Positions 54,157-62,221 of a DNA stretch of 64,000 nt are shown piece by piece. The notes below the pieces were generated by a model, which was not told where the DNA came from, ran no database searches, and worked only from the letters and a program-made list of their open reading frames with translations. The stretch's first letter is position 1; every line of letters starts with the position of its first letter. The position numbers and the translations under genes were made by a program. Source of the stretch: Rhodocyclaceae bacterium (GTDB lineage: Bacteria; Pseudomonadota; Gammaproteobacteria; Burkholderiales; Rhodocyclaceae); NCBI GenBank assembly GCA_020445745.1, contig JAGRGB010000028.1, positions 1-64,000 on the forward strand, read 5' to 3'.

Positions 54157-55119
54157 TCACGCCAGCGCGCCGCCGCAGCTCGAACCCTGGCCGGCAGTGC
54201 AACCGAAACAGTGGTCGGCAACCCGGATAGGCCGTTGGTCGAGTTCCGCAGCGGTGATCTCCGACAGATGCAAGCGGGTCTGGCCCGGGCGCATGCCGAG
54301 ACCGAGCTGCTGGTTGAAGTCGCAGTCGTAGACATAGCCCTGCCAGTCCACCGAGATCAGCGAGCGGCACATCACCGCCGCCAGGTTGGCGTCGTTGTGG
54401 GCTGACTTCAGCACTTCCATGTAGTGGTTGAATTCGCCTTTCGAGATCAGCGTCGAGCCGAAGCGCTGGATCGGCATGTTGGCGAGGGTGAACAAGCTGT
54501 TGAAGACAATGCCGAACCGTGATCCCAGGGCCTCCCTGTAGGCGGCCTCGAGTTCGGCCTGGGGCGGTGGCAGGCTGGCGCCCAGCGGGTTGTAGACCAG
54601 GTTCAGTTCGAGCTCGCTGTCGGCCTGCCCGTAGCCCAGCCGGTTCAGCCTGCGCAGTGCCTCGATGCTGGCACCGAACACGCCCTTGCCGCGCTGTCGG
54701 TCCACATTGTCTTCGAGATAGCACGGCAGCGATGCCACGACGACGACCCGCTGCGCGGCGAGAAACGCCGCCAGATCCTCCTGCCCGGGCTCCTCGAGGA
54801 TCGTCAGATTGCAGCGGTCCATGACCGATCGCCCCCGTTCGCGGGCGGCACGCACCAGCCGCCGGAAGTGCCGGTTCAATTCGGGGGCGCCGCCGGTCAG
54901 GTCGAGGGACTTCACGGACGGGCTGGCGGCGAGGAACTCGATCACCCCATCGACGTTGGTGGCATCCATCTCCTCGGTGCGACGGGGGCCGGCATTGACA
55001 TGGCAATGCACACAACTCTGGTTGCACCGGTAGCCGAGGTTGACCTGGAGTGTCTCCAGGGCGTGACGACGGATCGCGGGGAAACGGGTGCCGGTGAGCA
55101 GCGGCAAAGTGGCGTGCAT
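54157..55119 (-). CDS. arsS: ArsS-like radical SAM protein with Cys-rich C-terminus
   Basis: 320 residues. The radical SAM cluster motif is C32-x3-C36-x2-C39 (GYRCNQSCVHCHV) near the N-terminus, followed by SLDLTGGAPELNRHF. The C-terminal DUF3641-type domain contains a second set of Cys (CRSLISVDWQGYVYDCDFNQQ) and the end motif HCFGCTAGQGSSCGG. This layout matches the rSAM/(seleno)Cys family that includes ArsS, implicated in arsenosugar formation. Some relatives carry selenocysteine at the G-S-S-C position; here it is Cys. No arsM methyltransferase is adjacent in this window, so the arsenic role is inference. AGGAG precedes ATG 55119; it is the first gene of a four-gene minus operon. Confidence 0.88.
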   Translation of the reverse strand: MHATLPLLTGTRFPAIRRHALETLQVNLGYRCNQSCVHCHVNAGPRRTEEMDATNVDGVIEFLAASPSVKSLDLTGGAPELNRHFRRLVRAARERGRSVMDRCNLTILEEPGQEDLAAFLAAQRVVVVASLPCYLEDNVDRQRGKGVFGASIEALRRLNRLGYGQADSELELNLVYNPLGASLPPPQAELEAAYREALGSRFGIVFNSLFTLANMPIQRFGSTLISKGEFNHYMEVLKSAHNDANLAAVMCRSLISVDWQGYVYDCDFNQQLGLGMRPGQTRLHLSEITAAELDQRPIRVADHCFGCTAGQGSSCGGALA

Positions 55120-55270
55120 GCAGGGCTCCTGTGGACTCTCATCGAATGTGACGGCTTGCCGGTAACGCACCTTACACCGGGCATGCCGTCGCCGCGCTTT
55201 CCGCGCGCCCGCCACGCACGGAAAGCCGTCCTCGCGCCAGCCGCGAGGGCCCCTGCCCGGGGTGCGGGCC

Positions 55271-55299
55271 GGGGGATTGGGGAATTGGGGAATTGGGGG
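55271..55299 (+). repeat. G-rich tandem repeat, canonical G-quadruplex motif
   Basis: Four runs of four or five G separated by ATT, AATT and AATT, so both a short tandem repeat of GGGGAATT-type units and a textbook four-tract G4 motif on the plus strand. It lies about 150 bases upstream of the radical SAM start and about 125 bases before the sigma-54-like promoter. A structural or regulatory role is inferred; variable copy number is possible. Confidence 0.75.
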
Positions 55300-55401
55300 A
55301 ATCTTTCCCTCACCAAAATATTGGCGATATCCCCCATGACCCCATTGCGCGGCGGCAGCGAAATGTCCAGGAAATTCGATAAGTATATGATCACAAAGGA
55401 A

Positions 55402-55416
55402 TGGGAAATTTTCCCA
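55402..55416. promoter_or_regulatory. 15-base palindrome, possible operator
   Basis: The sequence TGGGAAATTTTCCCA is an odd-length perfect inverted repeat (seven-base arms around one central base). It ends seven bases before the -24 element of the sigma-54-like promoter. That is too close for a normal enhancer site but suits a repressor or auxiliary factor. The regulator is unknown. Confidence 0.5.
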
Positions 55417-55422
55417 CTGGCA

Positions 55423-55438
55423 TGGCACGGTACATGCT
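55423..55438 (+). promoter_or_regulatory. Sigma-54-type (-24/-12) promoter
   Basis: TGGCACGGTACATGCT has the invariant GG and GC dinucleotides at the correct 12-base spacing and matches the TGGCACG-N4-TTGC consensus with one mismatch (ATGC for TTGC). Transcription would begin near 55450, about 55 bases upstream of the P-loop NTPase start at 55507. An enhancer-binding activator would be needed; none is encoded in the window, though an NtrB/AtoS-type kinase gene lies downstream at 59346. Confidence 0.6.
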
Positions 55439-55506
55439 CTTGATGGCTCAGGTGGCCGCAACAGGGAATGGCCGCGACCCTTGCCCCCGGAACCGAGGAG
55501 AAAGAC

Positions 55507-56586
55507 ATGGACTGCCAGAACATCAGCCTGCTCAATGCAAAGCGTATCGAAAGCCTGAAGACACCATTCGCGACCCGGCGCGTGCCGCGCAGCGCTTTCG
55601 CCACGCTGCTGACCGGCAATCTCGAGCCGCGCGCCGGGGACCTGGTGCTGTGCCGGGTCGAGAAGATCGGCCAGCATCGCCACCTCGAGCTGGTCAGCGG
55701 TCGGCGTGCCAGGCTCTACCCGGGCGACGAGATCCTGCTGGCCTACGGCAACCGCTATGCGCCGGACCAGTTCGAGTCGCTGGTACCCGAGGATCTCGGA
55801 CGCTGCCAGATGGTGGCCGCCGGCGGCATCGCGTCGAAGGTTATGACCAAGCACGGGCGCATGAAGAATGCGACCAACGTCCTACCCCTGGGCCTGGTCG
55901 GCGACCGCCACGGCAAGCCCATCAACCTGGCCGATTTCGCCCTCCCGGAGCCGGCGCCGCAGACTGCCTGTCCGTTCGTGATCTCGGTGCTCGGCACCTC
56001 GATGAACGCAGGCAAGACCGAGACCGCGGCGCAGATCATCCGCGGCCTGCGGACCGCCGGGCTGCGGGTCGGGGCGGCCAAGGTCACCGGCACCGGTTCC
56101 GGCGGCGACGTCTGGTCGATGAACGATGCGGGCGCGGAGACGGTGCTGGACTTCACCGATGCCGGCCTGCCCTCGACCTACCTGGCCGATGGCGTCGAGG
56201 TCATCCGGGTGATGGACACGCTGATCGGCTACCTCGGTGCCAGTGGCGTCGACGTGGTGGTGTTCGAGGTCGCCGACGGACTGTTCCAGCGGGAGACCGC
56301 GGAACTGGTCAAGTCGCCCGAGTACGCTGACGCCGTCGATGCGGTGGTGTTCGCTGCCGGCGACGCGATGGGCTCGGCCGGTGGCATCCAGTGGCTGCGC
56401 TCCCTCGGCCTGCCGGTGCGCGCCGCGACCGGTGTGCTCACCGCGTCGCCGCTGGCGGCCCGCGAGGCGGCGCTGGTGACCGGTCTGCCGGTGCTCGGCC
56501 TCGACGAGTTGTCGAGCGCAGAAATTTCCGAGCATCTCGGCTATGCGGCGCGCCGGGCCTTGCTGCAGGTCGGGGGCGCCCAGTGA
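55507..56586 (+). CDS. P-loop NTPase-domain protein, function unknown
   Basis: 359 residues. The first 150 form a beta-rich domain of unclear family (VLCRVEKIGQHRHLELVSGRRARLYPGDEILLAYGNRYAPDQFE). Walker A is G163-T-S-M-N-A-G-K170-T171. The region after it (RTAGLRVGAAKVTGTGSGGDVWSMNDAGA) resembles MobB- or BioD-like P-loop enzymes, and VDVVVFEVADGLFQRET looks like a Walker B-type strand. No substrate motif is recognised. GAGGAGA precedes ATG 55507, chosen over an upstream in-frame start at 55468. Its stop overlaps the ABC gene start (GTGA). First gene behind the sigma-54-like promoter. Confidence 0.8.
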   Translation: MDCQNISLLNAKRIESLKTPFATRRVPRSAFATLLTGNLEPRAGDLVLCRVEKIGQHRHLELVSGRRARLYPGDEILLAYGNRYAPDQFESLVPEDLGRCQMVAAGGIASKVMTKHGRMKNATNVLPLGLVGDRHGKPINLADFALPEPAPQTACPFVISVLGTSMNAGKTETAAQIIRGLRTAGLRVGAAKVTGTGSGGDVWSMNDAGAETVLDFTDAGLPSTYLADGVEVIRVMDTLIGYLGASGVDVVVFEVADGLFQRETAELVKSPEYADAVDAVVFAAGDAMGSAGGIQWLRSLGLPVRAATGVLTASPLAAREAALVTGLPVLGLDELSSAEISEHLGYAARRALLQVGGAQ

Positions 56587-58319
56587 CGGCTCGGCGCGTG
56601 CCGCAATTGCTGGCCGGGCCGCGGCGCGCGATGCTCGGCCGCCTGGTCGCCATCGGCGTCGCCCAGGCCGCGATGACGCTGGCCAGCGCCTGGCTGGTAC
56701 ATGCTTTCTTCGACCACGCGGTGCAGGGCCAGAATGTGGCGAGTGCGGTCAGTTGGCTGATCGTCGCGTTGATTGCCGCAGGCGGGGCGCTCGCCTGGCT
56801 ACGCACGATCGAGCGGGTGCAGGCCGAAAGCATGGGCCAGCACTATGCCGCCGAACTGCGGCTGTCGCTGTTCGACGGGCTGGCGGGGCAGTCGCCGCGG
56901 CGACTCCAGTCGCGCAGCCGGGGCGGCACCCTGTTGCGCTTCATGGGCGACGTCAAGGGAGTGAGGCGCTGGGTGAGCCTGGGTCTGCCGCGGCTGGCGG
57001 TCGGTGGCCTTGCTGCCGGGCTGGCGCTGATCGTGCTGGCGGCGGTCGATCCCTGGCTGTCGCTGGCGGCGGTCTGCGGCTTCGCGCTGTCGGGTCTCGC
57101 GCTGGCCTGGCTGACGACGCGGGTCGAACCGGCGGTACGGGAGGCGCGCCGGCGCCAGGCGCGCCTCGCCGCCGATGTCAATGACCGGATCGCGGCGATC
57201 GCGGTCGTCCAGGTGTTCGATCAGGCAGCGCGCGAGAAGCGCCGCCTGGGCCGCCAGTCGGATGCCCTCGCCCACGCCATGGTGGATCAGATGCGAGGCA
57301 TGTCGCTGTTGCGCTCGGCGGCGGAATTCGGCGGCGCGCTCGCTTCCGCGCTGGTGCTGTTCGTCGGTGCCGTGGAGGTCGGGCGCGGCATGATCGAACC
57401 GGCCGACGTGGTCGGCGCGCTGACCGTCGCCGGCCTGATCGCCCCGGCCTTCCGCGACCTCGGTCAGGTGCTCGGCCACTGGCGCAGCGCCTTGGTGTCG
57501 CTGGCCAAGATCGAGGAATTCCTGGCCGCACCGAAACTGGCGATCCAAGCGGCCGGCGGCGAGACGCCGCGGTTGCCGGGCCACGGCAGGCCGATCGCGG
57601 TAGATTTCCGCGCCGTCTCGGTCGGCGAGGCGCTGCGCGAATTCTCTGCGCGGGTCTGCGCCGGGCAAAAGGTCGCGATCGTCGGGCCGAACGGCTCCGG
57701 CAAGTCGACCGTGCTCGGCCTGGTGGCGCGTCTGATCGAAGCAGATGGCGGTGAGGTTCTGCTCGATGGCCACCGGGTGCAGGAATATGCGCTGTCGGAC
57801 CTGCGCGCCCGGCTCGGCGTGGTGACGCCGGATCTGCCTCTGCTGCGCGGCTCGATCGAGCGCAACCTGGTCTACCGCAAGCCGCGGGCCGGCCGCCGGG
57901 AGCGGGCCCAGGTCGAGGCCATGTGCGGTGTCGACGAGCTGCTCGCCACCCTTCCCGAGGGCGGCTCGACGCGGGTCGGCGAGGGTGGTGGCAACCTGTC
58001 GTTCGGCCAGCGCCAGCGCATCGCGTGGGCTCGCGCACTGCTGGGCCGCCCGGGCTTGCTGTTGCTCGACGAGGCGGATGCCAACCTCGATCCGGTGTCG
58101 GCAACGCGACTCGGCGAAACGCTGGACGAATACGACGGGACGGTACTGATGGTGACGCACCAGCTGGCGCGTGTGATGCAGGCCGACGAGGTGTGGTATC
58201 TGGAGGCGGGCCGGCTTGTCGAGCACGGCGCGCCGCAGGATCTGCTCGCGCGCGACAGTGCGACCAGGCGAATGTTCCGCCGGGCGTTGCGCCCGGTGAT
58301 GTCGGAGTGCGTGGCATGA
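56583..58319 (+). CDS. ABC half-exporter (fused membrane and ATPase domains)
   Basis: 578 residues. The membrane domain (about 15-310) has five or six helices and an ICL-like SRGGTLLRFMGDVKGVRRWVS. The ATPase domain has Walker A VGPNGSGKST (near 370), the signature LSFGQRQR (F replacing the usual G), Walker B LLLLDEADANLDP and the switch His in VTHQLAR. It would work as a homodimer or with another half. GTG start 56583 overlaps the NTPase stop and its own stop overlaps the hydrolase start (ATGA). The three genes are thus translationally coupled; export of the product of the neighbouring enzymes is a plausible but untested role. Confidence 0.88.
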   Translation: MTARRVPQLLAGPRRAMLGRLVAIGVAQAAMTLASAWLVHAFFDHAVQGQNVASAVSWLIVALIAAGGALAWLRTIERVQAESMGQHYAAELRLSLFDGLAGQSPRRLQSRSRGGTLLRFMGDVKGVRRWVSLGLPRLAVGGLAAGLALIVLAAVDPWLSLAAVCGFALSGLALAWLTTRVEPAVREARRRQARLAADVNDRIAAIAVVQVFDQAAREKRRLGRQSDALAHAMVDQMRGMSLLRSAAEFGGALASALVLFVGAVEVGRGMIEPADVVGALTVAGLIAPAFRDLGQVLGHWRSALVSLAKIEEFLAAPKLAIQAAGGETPRLPGHGRPIAVDFRAVSVGEALREFSARVCAGQKVAIVGPNGSGKSTVLGLVARLIEADGGEVLLDGHRVQEYALSDLRARLGVVTPDLPLLRGSIERNLVYRKPRAGRRERAQVEAMCGVDELLATLPEGGSTRVGEGGGNLSFGQRQRIAWARALLGRPGLLLLDEADANLDPVSATRLGETLDEYDGTVLMVTHQLARVMQADEVWYLEAGRLVEHGAPQDLLARDSATRRMFRRALRPVMSECVA

Positions 58320-59272
58320 GCGGATCGATCTTGCATCCGGAACATCTTTCCGCAGCGATCGCGGGGTTCATCGGAACCGGTTTGGTGGCCGGTGGGATGG
58401 GGGTCCTGGCCGATGTCCCCGCGTTCGCTGCGACCTTGCAGCGAACGGGCGAGGCCCGCGAGCGGGCTCACGGCGCGGCGCGCGGCGAAATCCTGACGAT
58501 GCGGCTCGACGAAGACCGACGCTTTCGCTACCTGGCCTACATTCCCGAGAGCGCCACGGCGGGCGCCAGGATGCTGGTCACCGTTCACGGCATATCGCGC
58601 AACGCGCGCGAGCACCTGCGGATGATGGCGCCGCTGGCCGAACGCTTCGGTGTCGTCATGCTGGCGCCGTGCTACGGCCGCCAACGCTTCCCGAGCTATC
58701 AGCGTCTGCTGCCGGACGACAAGGGCATGCGGCCCGACGTCCTGCTGCGCGCCGCGGCGCGCGAACTCGCACAGCTGAGCGGCGCCAGCGACCGGCTGCT
58801 CTATCTGTTCGGTTACTCGGGCGGTGCCCAGTTCGTCCATCGCTTCGCGATGCACTGGCCGGCGCGAGTGGCACGCTATGCCCTCGGCGCCGCCGGCTGG
58901 TATACCTTCCCGGACGCAGGGCAGCGATATCCCTACGGCCTGGCGCGCAGCCAGCGCCACGACCTGGGCGAGATCGACCTCGAAGCCTTCCTCAAGCTGC
59001 CGGGCCTGGTATTGGTGGGCGAGCGAGACGTCCACAAGGACAGCGCGCTGCGCGACTCGCGCCGCCTGGAACGCCAGCAGGGCGGTTCGCGGATGGAGCG
59101 GGCCGGCAACTGGGTCGCCGCCGTCAACTCGGCGGCGCACCTGCGCTCGATGCCGGCACCGGTGCGCTTCGATACCCTCGCGCGTTCGCCCCATTCCTTT
59201 TCCCGCAGCATGCGCCGGGGCGACATGGGAGAGAAAGTGTTTCGACATTTCTTCGGCGCTGCGCCGCGCTAG
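58316..59272 (+). CDS. Alpha/beta hydrolase, function unknown
   Basis: 318 residues. A hydrophobic N-terminus (SAAIAGFIGTGLVAGGMGVLADV) is followed by the hydrolase fold: MLVTVHGISRNAREHLRMMAPLAERFGVVMLAPCYG, the nucleophile elbow LFGYSGGAQFVHRFAMHWP and LVLVGERDVHKDSALRDS with the Asp; a C-terminal H-S-F motif (ARSPHSFSRSM) offers the His. The architecture resembles bacterial polyhydroxyalkanoate/feruloyl esterase-like enzymes, but the substrate is unknown. It is the last gene of the operon and overlaps the ABC gene by four bases. Confidence 0.8.
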   Translation: MSGSILHPEHLSAAIAGFIGTGLVAGGMGVLADVPAFAATLQRTGEARERAHGAARGEILTMRLDEDRRFRYLAYIPESATAGARMLVTVHGISRNAREHLRMMAPLAERFGVVMLAPCYGRQRFPSYQRLLPDDKGMRPDVLLRAAARELAQLSGASDRLLYLFGYSGGAQFVHRFAMHWPARVARYALGAAGWYTFPDAGQRYPYGLARSQRHDLGEIDLEAFLKLPGLVLVGERDVHKDSALRDSRRLERQQGGSRMERAGNWVAAVNSAAHLRSMPAPVRFDTLARSPHSFSRSMRRGDMGEKVFRHFFGAAPR

Positions 59273-59345
59273 GCGGCGGCGTTAGCGTACGATTCCGTCG
59301 TCGAGTTCGGATCCGGCCTGCGGAGCCGGGTCGGGGAGATCAAGC

Positions 59346-60713
59346 ATGGCCACGCCCAAGCCGCGTCAACCGGTCGTCAGATCCTTCAACCTCAACCGCT
59401 GGTTCGCGATCGTCGGCCTGATTTCGATCGCGACGATCTCGGCCCTTGCCGGCTGGGCACTGTCGCGCTTCGTCAGCGACGAGATGCTGAAGCAGGAAGG
59501 CGAGCTGACCCAGCAGTTCGTGCAGACCCTGGTTTCGACCGAGCGGTCGCTGCAGAGCTATTTCGCGTTCGGCGAAGCCGAGGATTCGCTCGAACTCGAG
59601 CTGGCGATGTCCCACATCTCGCGCATGCAGGACATGTTGCGGGCGAATGTCTATAACGTCGATGAGCGGGTGATCTGGTCGAGCGATCGCCAACTCGAGG
59701 GCCACACCTTCGGCCCCAACGACGAACTGGAGGAGGCGCTCGCCGGGCACCTGGTCGTGCACACCGACGTCCATCACAAGCACGGCGGCAAGACCGAGCA
59801 TCGGAACCTGGAAAAGCGCGCCGACCTGTTCGTCGAGATCTATGTGCCGGTGCGCGACCCGGGCTCCGGCGAGGTCGTCGGGGCGATCGAGTTCTACAAG
59901 AATCCCCAGCCCCTGTTCCATGCACTGCAGCGGATGCGCTACTACATCGCGCTCGGTGCCGCACTGGCGGGTGGTTTCCTTTATCTGGCGCTGGCCGGTT
60001 TGGTGCGTCGCGCCGATGGCCTGATGCGGGCGCAGGAGCGCCGCCTGATCGATACCGAGACGCTGGCGGTGATCGGCGAGATGAGTTCGGCGGTGGCCCA
60101 CGGCATTCGCAATCCGCTGGCGTCGATCCGCAGCTCCGCGGAAGTGATCCAGGTCGCCGATCTGGCGGTGGCACGCGAGGCCGGCGCCGACATCGTGTCC
60201 GAATCGGACCGCCTCGAGGCCTGGGTGCGCGAATTGCTCTCGTTCTCCCGGCCGCTCGAGGACGAGCCCGAGCCGGTGCAGGTGGCACCGCTGATCGAGC
60301 GCTGCATCGAGGATTTCGGGCGCGATCTGGAGAAGCGCCGCATCGACTGCCGGGTGGATTCGGTCGACGGCCTGCCCGAGGTGCGGGGCGATGCCCTGCT
60401 GCTCGGCCAGGTCCTGCACAGCCTGGTCTCGAACGCGGTCGAGGCGATCAACCGGGACGGTTGCCTGACCCTGCGCGCGGCGGGCAATCGTGGCAGCGGC
60501 GAGGTGATGCTGGCGATCGGCGATACCGGCCCGGGCATGAACCCGGAGCAGCTTTCCCTGGTCGGCAAGCCCTTCTATACCACCAAGGCGCGCGGTCTCG
60601 GCGTCGGCCTGTCCCAGGTGCGGCGCATCGTCGAGCGCTACGGCGGTCGGATCGAGATCGACAGCGAACCGGGGCGGGGCACCGAGGTCCGCCTGTACCT
60701 GCTGGCGGCCTGA
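59346..60713 (+). CDS. NtrB/AtoS-type sensor histidine kinase
   Basis: 455 residues. Two transmembrane helices (about 21-42 and 199-219) flank a periplasmic sensor region of about 155 residues. The HisKA box is ETLAVIGEMSSAVAHGIRNPLASIRSSAEVI with phosphoacceptor His252, followed by an HATPase domain with LVSNAVEAINRDG, IGDTGPGMNPEQL and GLGVGLSQVRRIVERYGGRI. The A-V-A-H-G-I-R-N-P-L form is common in kinases that phosphorylate sigma-54 activators. No response regulator gene is in the window. GGGGAG is close upstream of the ATG. It converges on the AlgE-like gene with five bases between stops. Confidence 0.88.
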   Translation: MATPKPRQPVVRSFNLNRWFAIVGLISIATISALAGWALSRFVSDEMLKQEGELTQQFVQTLVSTERSLQSYFAFGEAEDSLELELAMSHISRMQDMLRANVYNVDERVIWSSDRQLEGHTFGPNDELEEALAGHLVVHTDVHHKHGGKTEHRNLEKRADLFVEIYVPVRDPGSGEVVGAIEFYKNPQPLFHALQRMRYYIALGAALAGGFLYLALAGLVRRADGLMRAQERRLIDTETLAVIGEMSSAVAHGIRNPLASIRSSAEVIQVADLAVAREAGADIVSESDRLEAWVRELLSFSRPLEDEPEPVQVAPLIERCIEDFGRDLEKRRIDCRVDSVDGLPEVRGDALLLGQVLHSLVSNAVEAINRDGCLTLRAAGNRGSGEVMLAIGDTGPGMNPEQLSLVGKPFYTTKARGLGVGLSQVRRIVERYGGRIEIDSEPGRGTEVRLYLLAA

Positions 60714-60718
60714 ACACT

Positions 60719-62221
60719 TCAGAAATTGACGGTCAGCACCAGCTCGCCGAGCCAGGCGCGCTCGCCGCTGCGCGGGCCGAAGGCGGAACCCGCGCGGAAG
60801 GTCGCGAGGCTGACCAGCACCTCGGCGCGCGCTGACTCGCGGACTGCGGCGAACAGGTCCACCTCCTGTCCGAGCGCACGGCTCTCGCCCCCGGGCGAGG
60901 CCGTGATCCGGCTGGCGGCGAGATCCTCGCCGGCTTCGCGCTGGCGGTAGTCGTGCACCACCACATCTATCGAACTCTTCTTCCAGAAACGCAGGCTGCC
61001 GCCGATCGATCGGATGTCGAGGTTCGACAGGCTCGGCCGCAGTAGCTCGCCGTAGTAGCGGAAGCGCTTGACACCGCCGAAGCGCGCCTTGTTCTCCTCG
61101 AGCCCGGACTGCCGGAAAGCGTGGTCGCGGTCGTCGTCCTTGTCGTCGCCCGAGCCCACCGCCCAGCCTGCCCACAGGGTCGGCCGCGCGCGGCCCGGCC
61201 ACGACCAGCGCGCACCGATGTCCCAGGCATGGGCGCGGACCGACCGCCGGCTGGTGCCATCTGCCACTTCCCGGTTGCCACCGGCAGCGTCGAAATCGGT
61301 GACCCTGTCGGTGCCCGACAGGCGGGCGAGATCGACCCAGTAGCCGAAGCGGTGGCCGCCGTCGAGCTTCTCCTCGCCGCCGGCCCGCAGGCCGATCCAG
61401 GTCAGGTCGGCGTCGGACTCGTCTACCCGGCGTTCGTGAATCACGGCGCCCTGCGCCGGCTGGCCGGAGTGGTCGCGACTCACCAGCAGGAAGGCCTCGA
61501 GGGTGTGCTTCCTGCGCCAGGCCCACCCGGCGTGGGCAAACCAGCGGGTCAGGCCGTCCTCCCCGGCATCGACGACGCCGCGCTCCGCAGTGGTGACCGG
61601 AAGCCATTGGCGGGCGACGCCGGTCTCCAGCACCCAGTCGCTGCTGCCGAAGAACAGGCGCAAGGCGTCGAGGTCGTCGTCCCACCACCAACTTCGATTC
61701 TCGACCAGGCTGATGCGGCCGAGCTGTAAGTCGAACGGCTGGCCTGCGGGCTGCGACACGAACACCCACGTCTGGCCGCGCTCGATCTCGCCGAAGCTCT
61801 CCACAGGCCCGTTTTCGCGCAGGGTTTCGAATTCGCTGTTGGCGATCAGTTGCAAAAACACGGCGCCGGCATCGCCGAGCGCGGCCGAGGCCTCGATCTT
61901 GAATTCCTGCTCGAGGGTGCCCCGGTCGCGGCGTTGGTCCTCGTCCAGGTCGTGGTTGATGCGGCTCTCGTGACCGATCTCCCATTCGCCGGCGATCCGC
62001 AGCGGGGTGTCGAAAAGGGTGATCTCCCGCGCGCTGGCACGCCGTCGCTCGTCCGGGCGCCTGGCCAACTCGCCGGTCGCGGCGCGCGGGCGGCGGGGCT
62101 GCACGTCGGCGCTGGTCTCGTCGTCGTCCTGGGCGAACGCCCGCGGGGTGCCGACCACACAGGCGAGCGCCAGCGCCAGCGCCAGCGGTCGCGCCGGCAT
62201 GATCCGGAACGGGCTCTTCAT
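60719..62221 (-). CDS. AlgE-like outer membrane protein (alginate export family)
   Basis: 500 residues. A signal peptide (PLALALALACVVGTPRAFA) precedes a short acidic-basic linker and a region of alternating aromatic and charged strands to the end, with F-D-L-Q-L-G-R, W-W-W-D-D-D-L-D-A-L-R and L-V-L-T-V-N-F as the C-terminal strand ending in Phe, as expected for an outer membrane barrel. The layout matches the alginate_exp family, which exports polysaccharide or takes up small molecules. Its start overlaps the deacetylase stop (ATGA), consistent with a polysaccharide operon. Confidence 0.82.
   Translation of the reverse strand: MKSPFRIMPARPLALALALACVVGTPRAFAQDDDETSADVQPRRPRAATGELARRPDERRRASAREITLFDTPLRIAGEWEIGHESRINHDLDEDQRRDRGTLEQEFKIEASAALGDAGAVFLQLIANSEFETLRENGPVESFGEIERGQTWVFVSQPAGQPFDLQLGRISLVENRSWWWDDDLDALRLFFGSSDWVLETGVARQWLPVTTAERGVVDAGEDGLTRWFAHAGWAWRRKHTLEAFLLVSRDHSGQPAQGAVIHERRVDESDADLTWIGLRAGGEEKLDGGHRFGYWVDLARLSGTDRVTDFDAAGGNREVADGTSRRSVRAHAWDIGARWSWPGRARPTLWAGWAVGSGDDKDDDRDHAFRQSGLEENKARFGGVKRFRYYGELLRPSLSNLDIRSIGGSLRFWKKSSIDVVVHDYRQREAGEDLAASRITASPGGESRALGQEVDLFAAVRESARAEVLVSLATFRAGSAFGPRSGERAWLGELVLTVNF

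What the first reader, a model, noticed from the sequence alone, without database searches (positions are those of the whole stretch)
55120..59272. P-loop NTPase / ABC half-exporter / alpha-beta hydrolase operon behind a sigma-54-like promoter
Three genes overlap by four bases each (GTGA at 56583-56586, ATGA at 58316-58319), so they act as one translationally coupled unit. None has a recognisable specific function: the NTPase has an unassigned N-terminal domain, the ABC protein has LSFGQ in place of LSGGQ, and the hydrolase has an N-terminal hydrophobic segment. A -24/-12 promoter sits just upstream. This looks like a self-contained system, perhaps making, modifying and exporting a small product under nitrogen, carbon or stress control. 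This is the best candidate here for an undescribed system.
Basis: partly seen in the sequence, partly recalled or inferred. Interest (0 to 1): 0.72.

Follow-up and report, generated by a model that had tools for sequence, protein, structure and literature searches.

The report
Conserved sigma-54-controlled export operon, unknown product
A set of neighbouring bacterial genes, found together in many other proteobacteria, probably makes, exports and trims a small amino-acid-like molecule when a membrane sensor calls for it, and its first enzyme belongs to an uncharacterised family.

Summary
The NTPase, ABC half-exporter and hydrolase genes overlap by four bases each, and an exact sigma-54 element lies at 55423-55438. 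The block is conserved: in the NTPase clade holding the window protein, 33 of 39 loci have the ABC gene directly downstream and 29 of 39 a related hydrolase in the fetched stretch. The sigma-54 element is present in all 11 betaproteobacterial loci of the window's sub-clade. LSFGQ is not special. The NTPase resembles BioD/MobB only around its P-loop; its N-terminal domain is unassigned, and it is not a DUF1611 member. The hydrolase has a full triad and is closest to poly(aspartic acid) hydrolase and LpqC. Best reading, partly inferred: an inducible make-export-trim system for an amide-type product. Two side findings are more surprising: a sister NTPase clade lies next to argC in nine genomes without detectable ArgA or ArgJ, and the ABC partner has lost its ATPase motifs in several lineages.

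The parts
55402..55416 (.). Perfect palindrome TGGGAAATTTTCCCA beside the -24 box, candidate activator site
   Evidence: 0 mismatches here and in L008-L010, 1 in L013-L016; absent in L011, L012, L017. Palindrome plus sigma-54 pattern found once in each of 4 congeneric genomes at 0-1 mismatches, not in the 2 genomes of another genus searched; the reversed control gave 3 hits in 6 genomes at up to 3 mismatches. On the minus strand it also scores as a terminator-like hairpin.
55423..55438 (+). Sigma-54 (-24/-12) promoter element TGGCACGGTACATGCT
   Evidence: expected start about 55449 by spacing (inference)
55495..55504 (+). Shine-Dalgarno-like GAGGAGAAAG
   Evidence: Read
55507..56586 (+). P-loop NTPase, 359 aa: unassigned N-terminal domain (about 1-150) and a BioD/MobB-like P-loop half (GTSMNAGKT, KVTG, DFTDAG, FEVADG)
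56583..58319 (+). ABC half-exporter, 578 aa, all ATPase motifs present (GPNGSGKST, LSFGQRQR, LLLLDEAD, THQL)
   Evidence: PF00664 68.1 bits and PF00005 91.6 bits, both over cut-off
58316..59272 (+). Alpha/beta hydrolase of the poly(Asp) hydrolase/LpqC type, 318 aa, triad S168-D238-H293, hydrophobic N-terminus (probable export signal)
59346..60713 (+). Sensor histidine kinase, 455 aa: two hydrophobic segments around a periplasmic-size loop, HisKA, HATPase_c
   Evidence: next to the block in W, L008-L015, divergent in L017

Best explanation
It is an inducible make-export-trim operon. Shown by comparison: the NTPase, ABC and hydrolase genes are inherited as a block, in betaproteobacteria behind a conserved sigma-54 element and with a cognate kinase (and, in Aromatoleum, a sigma-54 activator). 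Inferred: the kinase senses something in the periplasm; its response regulator (in this genome most likely the gene about 14 kb beyond the kinase on the same contig) starts transcription at about 55449. The BioD-like NTPase uses ATP or an activated acyl group to form an amide or N-acyl bond on an amino-acid-type molecule. The ABC protein, as a homodimer, moves the product across the inner membrane. The exported hydrolase, related to a beta-amide-cleaving poly(Asp) hydrolase, cuts or matures it in the periplasm or outside; in 11 of 39 loci a Porin_O_P gene in the neighbourhood could let it through the outer membrane. The block architecture and sigma-54 control are about 0.9 likely; the amide-type chemistry and the direction of flow about 0.35.
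For: ABC directly downstream in 33 of 39 loci of the clade, related hydrolase in 29 of 39, Porin_O_P in 11 of 39, and none of 13 loci of the two other clades with a hydrolase or porin hit. Sigma-54 element in 11 of 11 loci of the window's sub-clade and a sigma-54 activator in the Aromatoleum operon. Best regulator match in the own genome, 73% identity, on the same contig. BioD-type P-loop region. Hydrolase triad present in most loci and nearest solved relatives 6ve6 and 9o7u poly(Asp) hydrolase-1, with LpqC almost equal; PahZ1 cleaves beta-amide bonds of Asp oligomers (PMC4456602, passages seen). Amino-acid contexts of the sister clades.
Against: No substrate, product or transcript is known. 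BioD likeness covers only about 48 profile positions around the P-loop. LpqC, annotated as a putative PHB depolymerase, is as close as poly(Asp) hydrolase, so an ester is as possible as an amide. Sister clades share only 24-31% identity with the window protein. The hydrolase is not seen in 10 of 39 loci (2 of these end inside the ABC gene). The ABC partner lacks ATPase motifs in several lineages, which does not fit a simple export pump.
Confidence: 0.4

Rival explanations
1. Detoxification or self-protection: the NTPase modifies a harmful amino-acid-like compound, the ABC protein pumps it out and the secreted hydrolase destroys it; the kinase senses the compound.
For: The ABC protein resembles multidrug and lipid exporters of the ABCB/MsbA kind. 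The block is patchy: found in 4 of the 6 congeneric genomes listed and 7 of 199 family genomes, and on alphaproteobacterial plasmids.
Against: Nothing points to a toxin target or a biosynthetic cluster next to the window block; PADLOC gives no hit for NTPase or hydrolase, and for the ABC protein only ATPase-type matches to defence models. A porin beside the block in 11 of 39 loci would increase entry.
Confidence: 0.2
2. The NTPase acts on the transporter (motor, loader or assembly factor) rather than making a product; in lineages where the ABC protein has lost its ATPase motifs the NTPase supplies the nucleotide-driven step.
For: The ABC gene is directly downstream of the NTPase in 33 of 39 loci. 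Walker A and Walker B are gone in L019, L067, L101, L102, L105 and L106, and the signature and Walker B are altered in L082, L083 and L086, while the NTPase keeps its P-loop. At least 2 changes between the two states on the NTPase tree.
Against: In the window both proteins have complete motifs. The sister clades keep the NTPase with no ABC gene at all, so its chemistry does not need one. A second, intact ABC subunit elsewhere in those genomes was not searched for. L019 has no Pfam match at all; it is called ABC by position and blastp clustering only.
Confidence: 0.15
3. Scavenging: the porin and exported hydrolase break down an external polyamide or polyester and the cytoplasmic genes process the fragments; the ABC protein imports or balances them.
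For: Hydrolase kin of poly(Asp) hydrolase and PHB depolymerase-like LpqC; Porin_O_P in 11 of 39 loci; environmental hosts.
Against: The ABC fold is of the exporter type (PF00664), and no substrate-binding protein was noticed beside the block; no catabolic gene is conserved with it in the clusters listed.
Confidence: 0.15

Closest known systems
Dethiobiotin synthetase (BioD) and MobB P-loop enzymes
   Same: P-loop, following helix and the K-x-TG motif (3fgn E 5e-4, 2f1r E 0.004)
   Different: Match limited to about 48-60 positions; extra N-terminal domain without Pfam or PDB match; no bioD model among the NCBIfam matches; different gene context
DUF1611 (PF07755) proteins
   Same: P-loop and following helix; NCBI names some plasmid homologues so
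   Different: Window protein below the gathering score (17.3 against 25); profile-profile match to 12 real members covers 38 columns, probability 20%
MsbA/ABCB-type ABC half-exporters
   Same: Transmembrane and ATPase domains in one chain, complete motifs
   Different: Best specific models far below cut-off (MsbA 241.5 of 602, CydD 221.1 of 435); fixed partnership with the NTPase; several relatives without ATPase motifs
Poly(aspartic acid) hydrolase-1 (PahZ1) and LpqC
   Same: Triad, GxSxG-G-xQFVHR and AGWYTxPD...YPYGL blocks
   Different: Substrate unknown; sits in an export operon
PrsK/PrsR-RpoN control of PEP-CTERM genes
   Same: Kinase plus sigma-54 activator with a TGGCAC -24 box; mapped example in Aquincola (PMC9850573, passages seen)
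   Different: Kinase and Aromatoleum regulator score below the PrsK and PrsR cut-offs (88.3 of 300; 366 of 502.6)

Membership tests
Dethiobiotin synthetase (BioD) | P-loop with following K-x-TG motif | tested here: met
Dethiobiotin synthetase (BioD) | Whole-protein match to a BioD model | tested here: not met
   NCBIfam at E up to 0.1 gives only MobB-type models, all below cut-off
DUF1611 (PF07755) | Pfam gathering score | tested here: not met
   17.3 against 25 bits; profile-profile 38 columns
ABC half-exporter | ABC_membrane and ABC_tran domains over cut-off, all ATPase motifs | tested here: met
MsbA or CydD/CydC | Curated equivalog cut-off | tested here: not met
   241.5 of 602; 221.1 of 435; 161.2 of 329
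PahZ1/LpqC-type alpha/beta hydrolase | Ser-Asp-His triad and shared core blocks | tested here: met
   Ser in 25, Asp in 24 and His in 25 of 27 sequences; L066 and L079 were left out of the count, 29 aligned
PahZ1/LpqC-type alpha/beta hydrolase | Cleavage of beta-amide (PahZ1) or ester bonds | not testable with these tools
   Needs enzyme assay
Sigma-54 promoter | GG and GC 12 bases apart in a TGGCAC-N5-TTGCW-like site, conserved upstream | tested here: met
   11 of 13 first loci; one mismatch to TTGC in the window
Sigma-54 promoter | RpoN-dependent transcript start | not testable with these tools
   Needs RNA work
NtrC-type two-component system | Receiver, sigma-54 activation domain and Fis-type HTH in the regulator; HisKA plus HATPase_c in the kinase | tested here: met
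   Regulators of Aromatoleum and of the own genome; kinase

The most novel reading that the evidence does not exclude
The NTPase belongs to a new class of P-loop amino-acid N-acyl (amide-forming) enzymes. One sister clade supplies the missing first step of arginine synthesis (an unrecognised N-acetylglutamate synthase beside argC), and the window clade uses the same chemistry to make an N-acylated or amide-linked amino-acid product that is exported by a partner ABC protein which in some lineages no longer hydrolyses ATP, and is cut by a poly(Asp)-hydrolase-like enzyme.
Probability: 0.22. Interest if true: 0.82.

Novelty: new variant of a known kind. Interest (0 to 1): 0.56.

Why it matters
[quoted passage not shown] The ABC proteins without ATPase motifs would make it possible to test directly whether an exporter-fold protein can work beside a separate NTPase.

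Tried and rejected
Rejected: LSFGQ as a special feature. Rejected: NTPase as a DUF1611 member, hence as an acetyltransferase by simple homology; that some DUF1611 proteins are D-glutamate N-acetyltransferases (DgcN) is recalled and was not found in the library. Rejected: arsenosugar gene arsS as part of the block. It is divergent, and P0004 matched only the four Rhodocyclaceae loci (W, L008-L010), not L011-L017. No Rfam match in 55000-60900. No sigma-70-like promoter in 55100-60900 and no excess of terminator-like sites. PF04768 search was uninformative, since nothing rang in the controls either. N-terminal domain: no PDB match better than E 0.2.

Results against the reading: outside the betaproteobacterial sub-clade the sigma-54 element is mostly absent. 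Of 44 other loci scanned, only L077 and L081 score about as high, at other distances. The palindrome is missing in L011, L012 and L017; L015 has it at another spacing; L073, L075, L076 and L080 have it without a clear sigma-54 element. ABC-less members of the clade: L065 and L070; L066, L068, L069 and L078 are rearranged.

Rows dropped: near-duplicates L009, L012, L014, L072, L082 from the 50-row alignment and tree (55 loci in all); L108 from the tree (its reading frame runs on into a transposase); weak matches at E 8e-6 to 5e-4 were not pursued; 12 of the 16 places were used.

Full report
Observation. In the window alone the promoter motif is not significant. Across relatives it is: 11 of 13 loci first collected, window included, carry a TGGCACG-type element 62-89 nt before the NTPase match, in otherwise diverged DNA, and in those 11 loci shuffled sequence reached the same score in 0 to 2 of 200 trials. 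In a related betaproteobacterium a mapped RpoN-dependent start has TGGCAC and CTGCTT as its -24 and -12 boxes (PMC9850573, passages seen).

Conservation of the block. Relatives came from the family (7 of 199 genomes), named genome contigs (12 loci), the order (18 of 399 at E up to 0.001, of which 8 genomes at E below 1e-80; the rest are short P-loop matches), the class (28 of 369), the phylum (5 of 398) and plasmids (8 records). These counts include the window's own genome. A tree of 54 NTPases shows three groups: clade A with the window protein, clade B (9 rows, 99/98) and clade C (4 rows, 100/99). In clade A, leaving out the long-branched L089, 33 of 39 rows have the ABC gene directly downstream (24 with intact visible motifs, two of which were judged on part of the gene or a plasmid record; 8 degenerate; 1 cut by the contig end), 29 of 39 have a related hydrolase in the fetched stretch (28 by the script, plus the hypothetical protein before the Sulfitobacter NTPase, 34% identity in the same call) and 11 of 39 a Porin_O_P gene. 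Two of the ten rows without a hydrolase end inside the ABC gene. None of the 13 rows of clades B and C has a hydrolase or porin hit.

Regulation. A histidine kinase follows the hydrolase in W and L008-L015, and HK plus regulator lie divergently upstream in L017. In Aromatoleum the next gene is a response regulator with a sigma-54 activation domain and Fis-type HTH. Searching the window's own genome with it gives 112 matches; the best, 73% identity over the whole length, lies on the same contig at C145:75047-76426, and the next best is 53% on another contig. Between kinase and regulator lie about 14 kb of minus-strand genes with Alginate_exp, GT28, ABC exporter, APH-like, heparinase-like and glycosyltransferase domains. 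That this regulator is the partner is inferred from identity and position. A palindrome TGGGAAATTTTCCCA sits directly before the -24 box; together with the promoter it is found once in each of four congeneric genomes at 0-1 mismatches, in neither of two genomes of another genus of the family, with 3 hits of the reversed control pattern in the same six genomes. Other lineages show other regulators nearby, such as ECF sigma factors with S8 peptidases in Paracoccus.

The NTPase. Pfam and NCBIfam give only MobB and DUF1611 matches below cut-off. A 50-row profile finds BioD (3fgn, E 5e-4) and MobB (2f1r, E 0.004) around the P-loop. Against 12 true DUF1611 proteins, profile comparison aligns 38 columns at 20% probability, so it is kin at superfamily level at most. 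The N-terminal domain has no PDB match better than E 0.2.

The ABC protein and hydrolase. The window's ABC protein has all ATPase motifs; the third letter of LSxGQ varies freely. In L019, L067, L101, L102, L105 and L106 Walker A and Walker B are gone; in L082, L083 and L086 Walker A is kept but the signature and Walker B are altered. Pfam still sees ABC_membrane over cut-off in L067, L101, L102 and L106, a little below it in L105 (26.6 of 28), and nothing in L019. The NTPase keeps its P-loop in these loci, and the NTPase tree needs at least 2 changes between the two ABC states. The hydrolase aligns with poly(Asp) hydrolase-1 (6ve6, E 1.2e-19; 9o7u, 8.7e-18) and LpqC (3d0k, 1.1e-17); its triad S168, D238, H293 is kept in 25, 24 and 25 of 27 counted relatives, L068 and L069 having lost it. 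Hydrophobic N-termini suggest export (by eye).

What it does. PahZ1 cleaves beta-amide bonds in Asp oligomers (PMC4456602, passages seen). Clade B sits directly before argC in 9 of 9 loci and directly after argG in 8 of 9 (L103 has an ArgR-type gene there instead). In a sample locus argG, argC, N-acetylornithine carbamoyltransferase, argB and argH pass their cut-offs; the argD-type gene does not (334.6 of 410), nor does ArgR in a second locus. Their genomes have no full-length ArgA over cut-off (0 of 9) and no ArgJ (0 of 9), while 4 of 4 clade A genomes searched alongside have both. Four of the nine have weak GNAT-only matches (E 7e-8 to 4e-4), and short or unrelated synthases exist (PMC4490483, passages seen), so the gap is suggestive, not proven. 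Clade C follows an M20 peptidase gene, in three of four loci with a flavin-reductase-like gene before that. These contexts make an amino-acid N-acyl or amide chemistry the likeliest family trait, which I carry over to the window protein as an inference.

Print. Searches (terms DUF1611, domain, acetyltransferase, dethiobiotin synthase, ABC transporter) showed no paper on this operon among the titles listed; the library lacks most subscription journals.

Noticed in passing
L090-L094, L096-L098, L103, NTPase relative before argC: A sister NTPase clade is linked to argC in 9 of 9 loci whose genomes show no full-length ArgA and no ArgJ; candidate for an unrecognised N-acetylglutamate synthase.
   Followed up: partly
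L019:11056-12600, L067:6323-7873, L101:8203-9753, L102:8370-9968, L105:9041-10621, L106:9050-10573: ABC-type partner proteins without Walker A and Walker B motifs beside an intact NTPase.
   Followed up: partly
window 60719 onwards and L121:719-14694: A minus-strand polysaccharide-type cluster of about 14 kb lies between the kinase and its likely response regulator.
   Followed up: partly
L109:4832-13520: Priestia megaterium plasmid cluster with PEP mutase-like, TPP-dependent, ATP-grasp and M20 genes around a distant NTPase relative; looks like a phosphonate-type pathway (annotation only).
   Followed up: no
L108:7998-9761: In Microvirga ossetica the NTPase reading frame runs on into a Mutator-type transposase domain and is annotated as transposase.
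   Followed up: no
window 54157-55119: Divergent neighbour is ArsS, arsenosugar radical SAM protein (TIGR04167, 457 of 300 bits).
   Followed up: no
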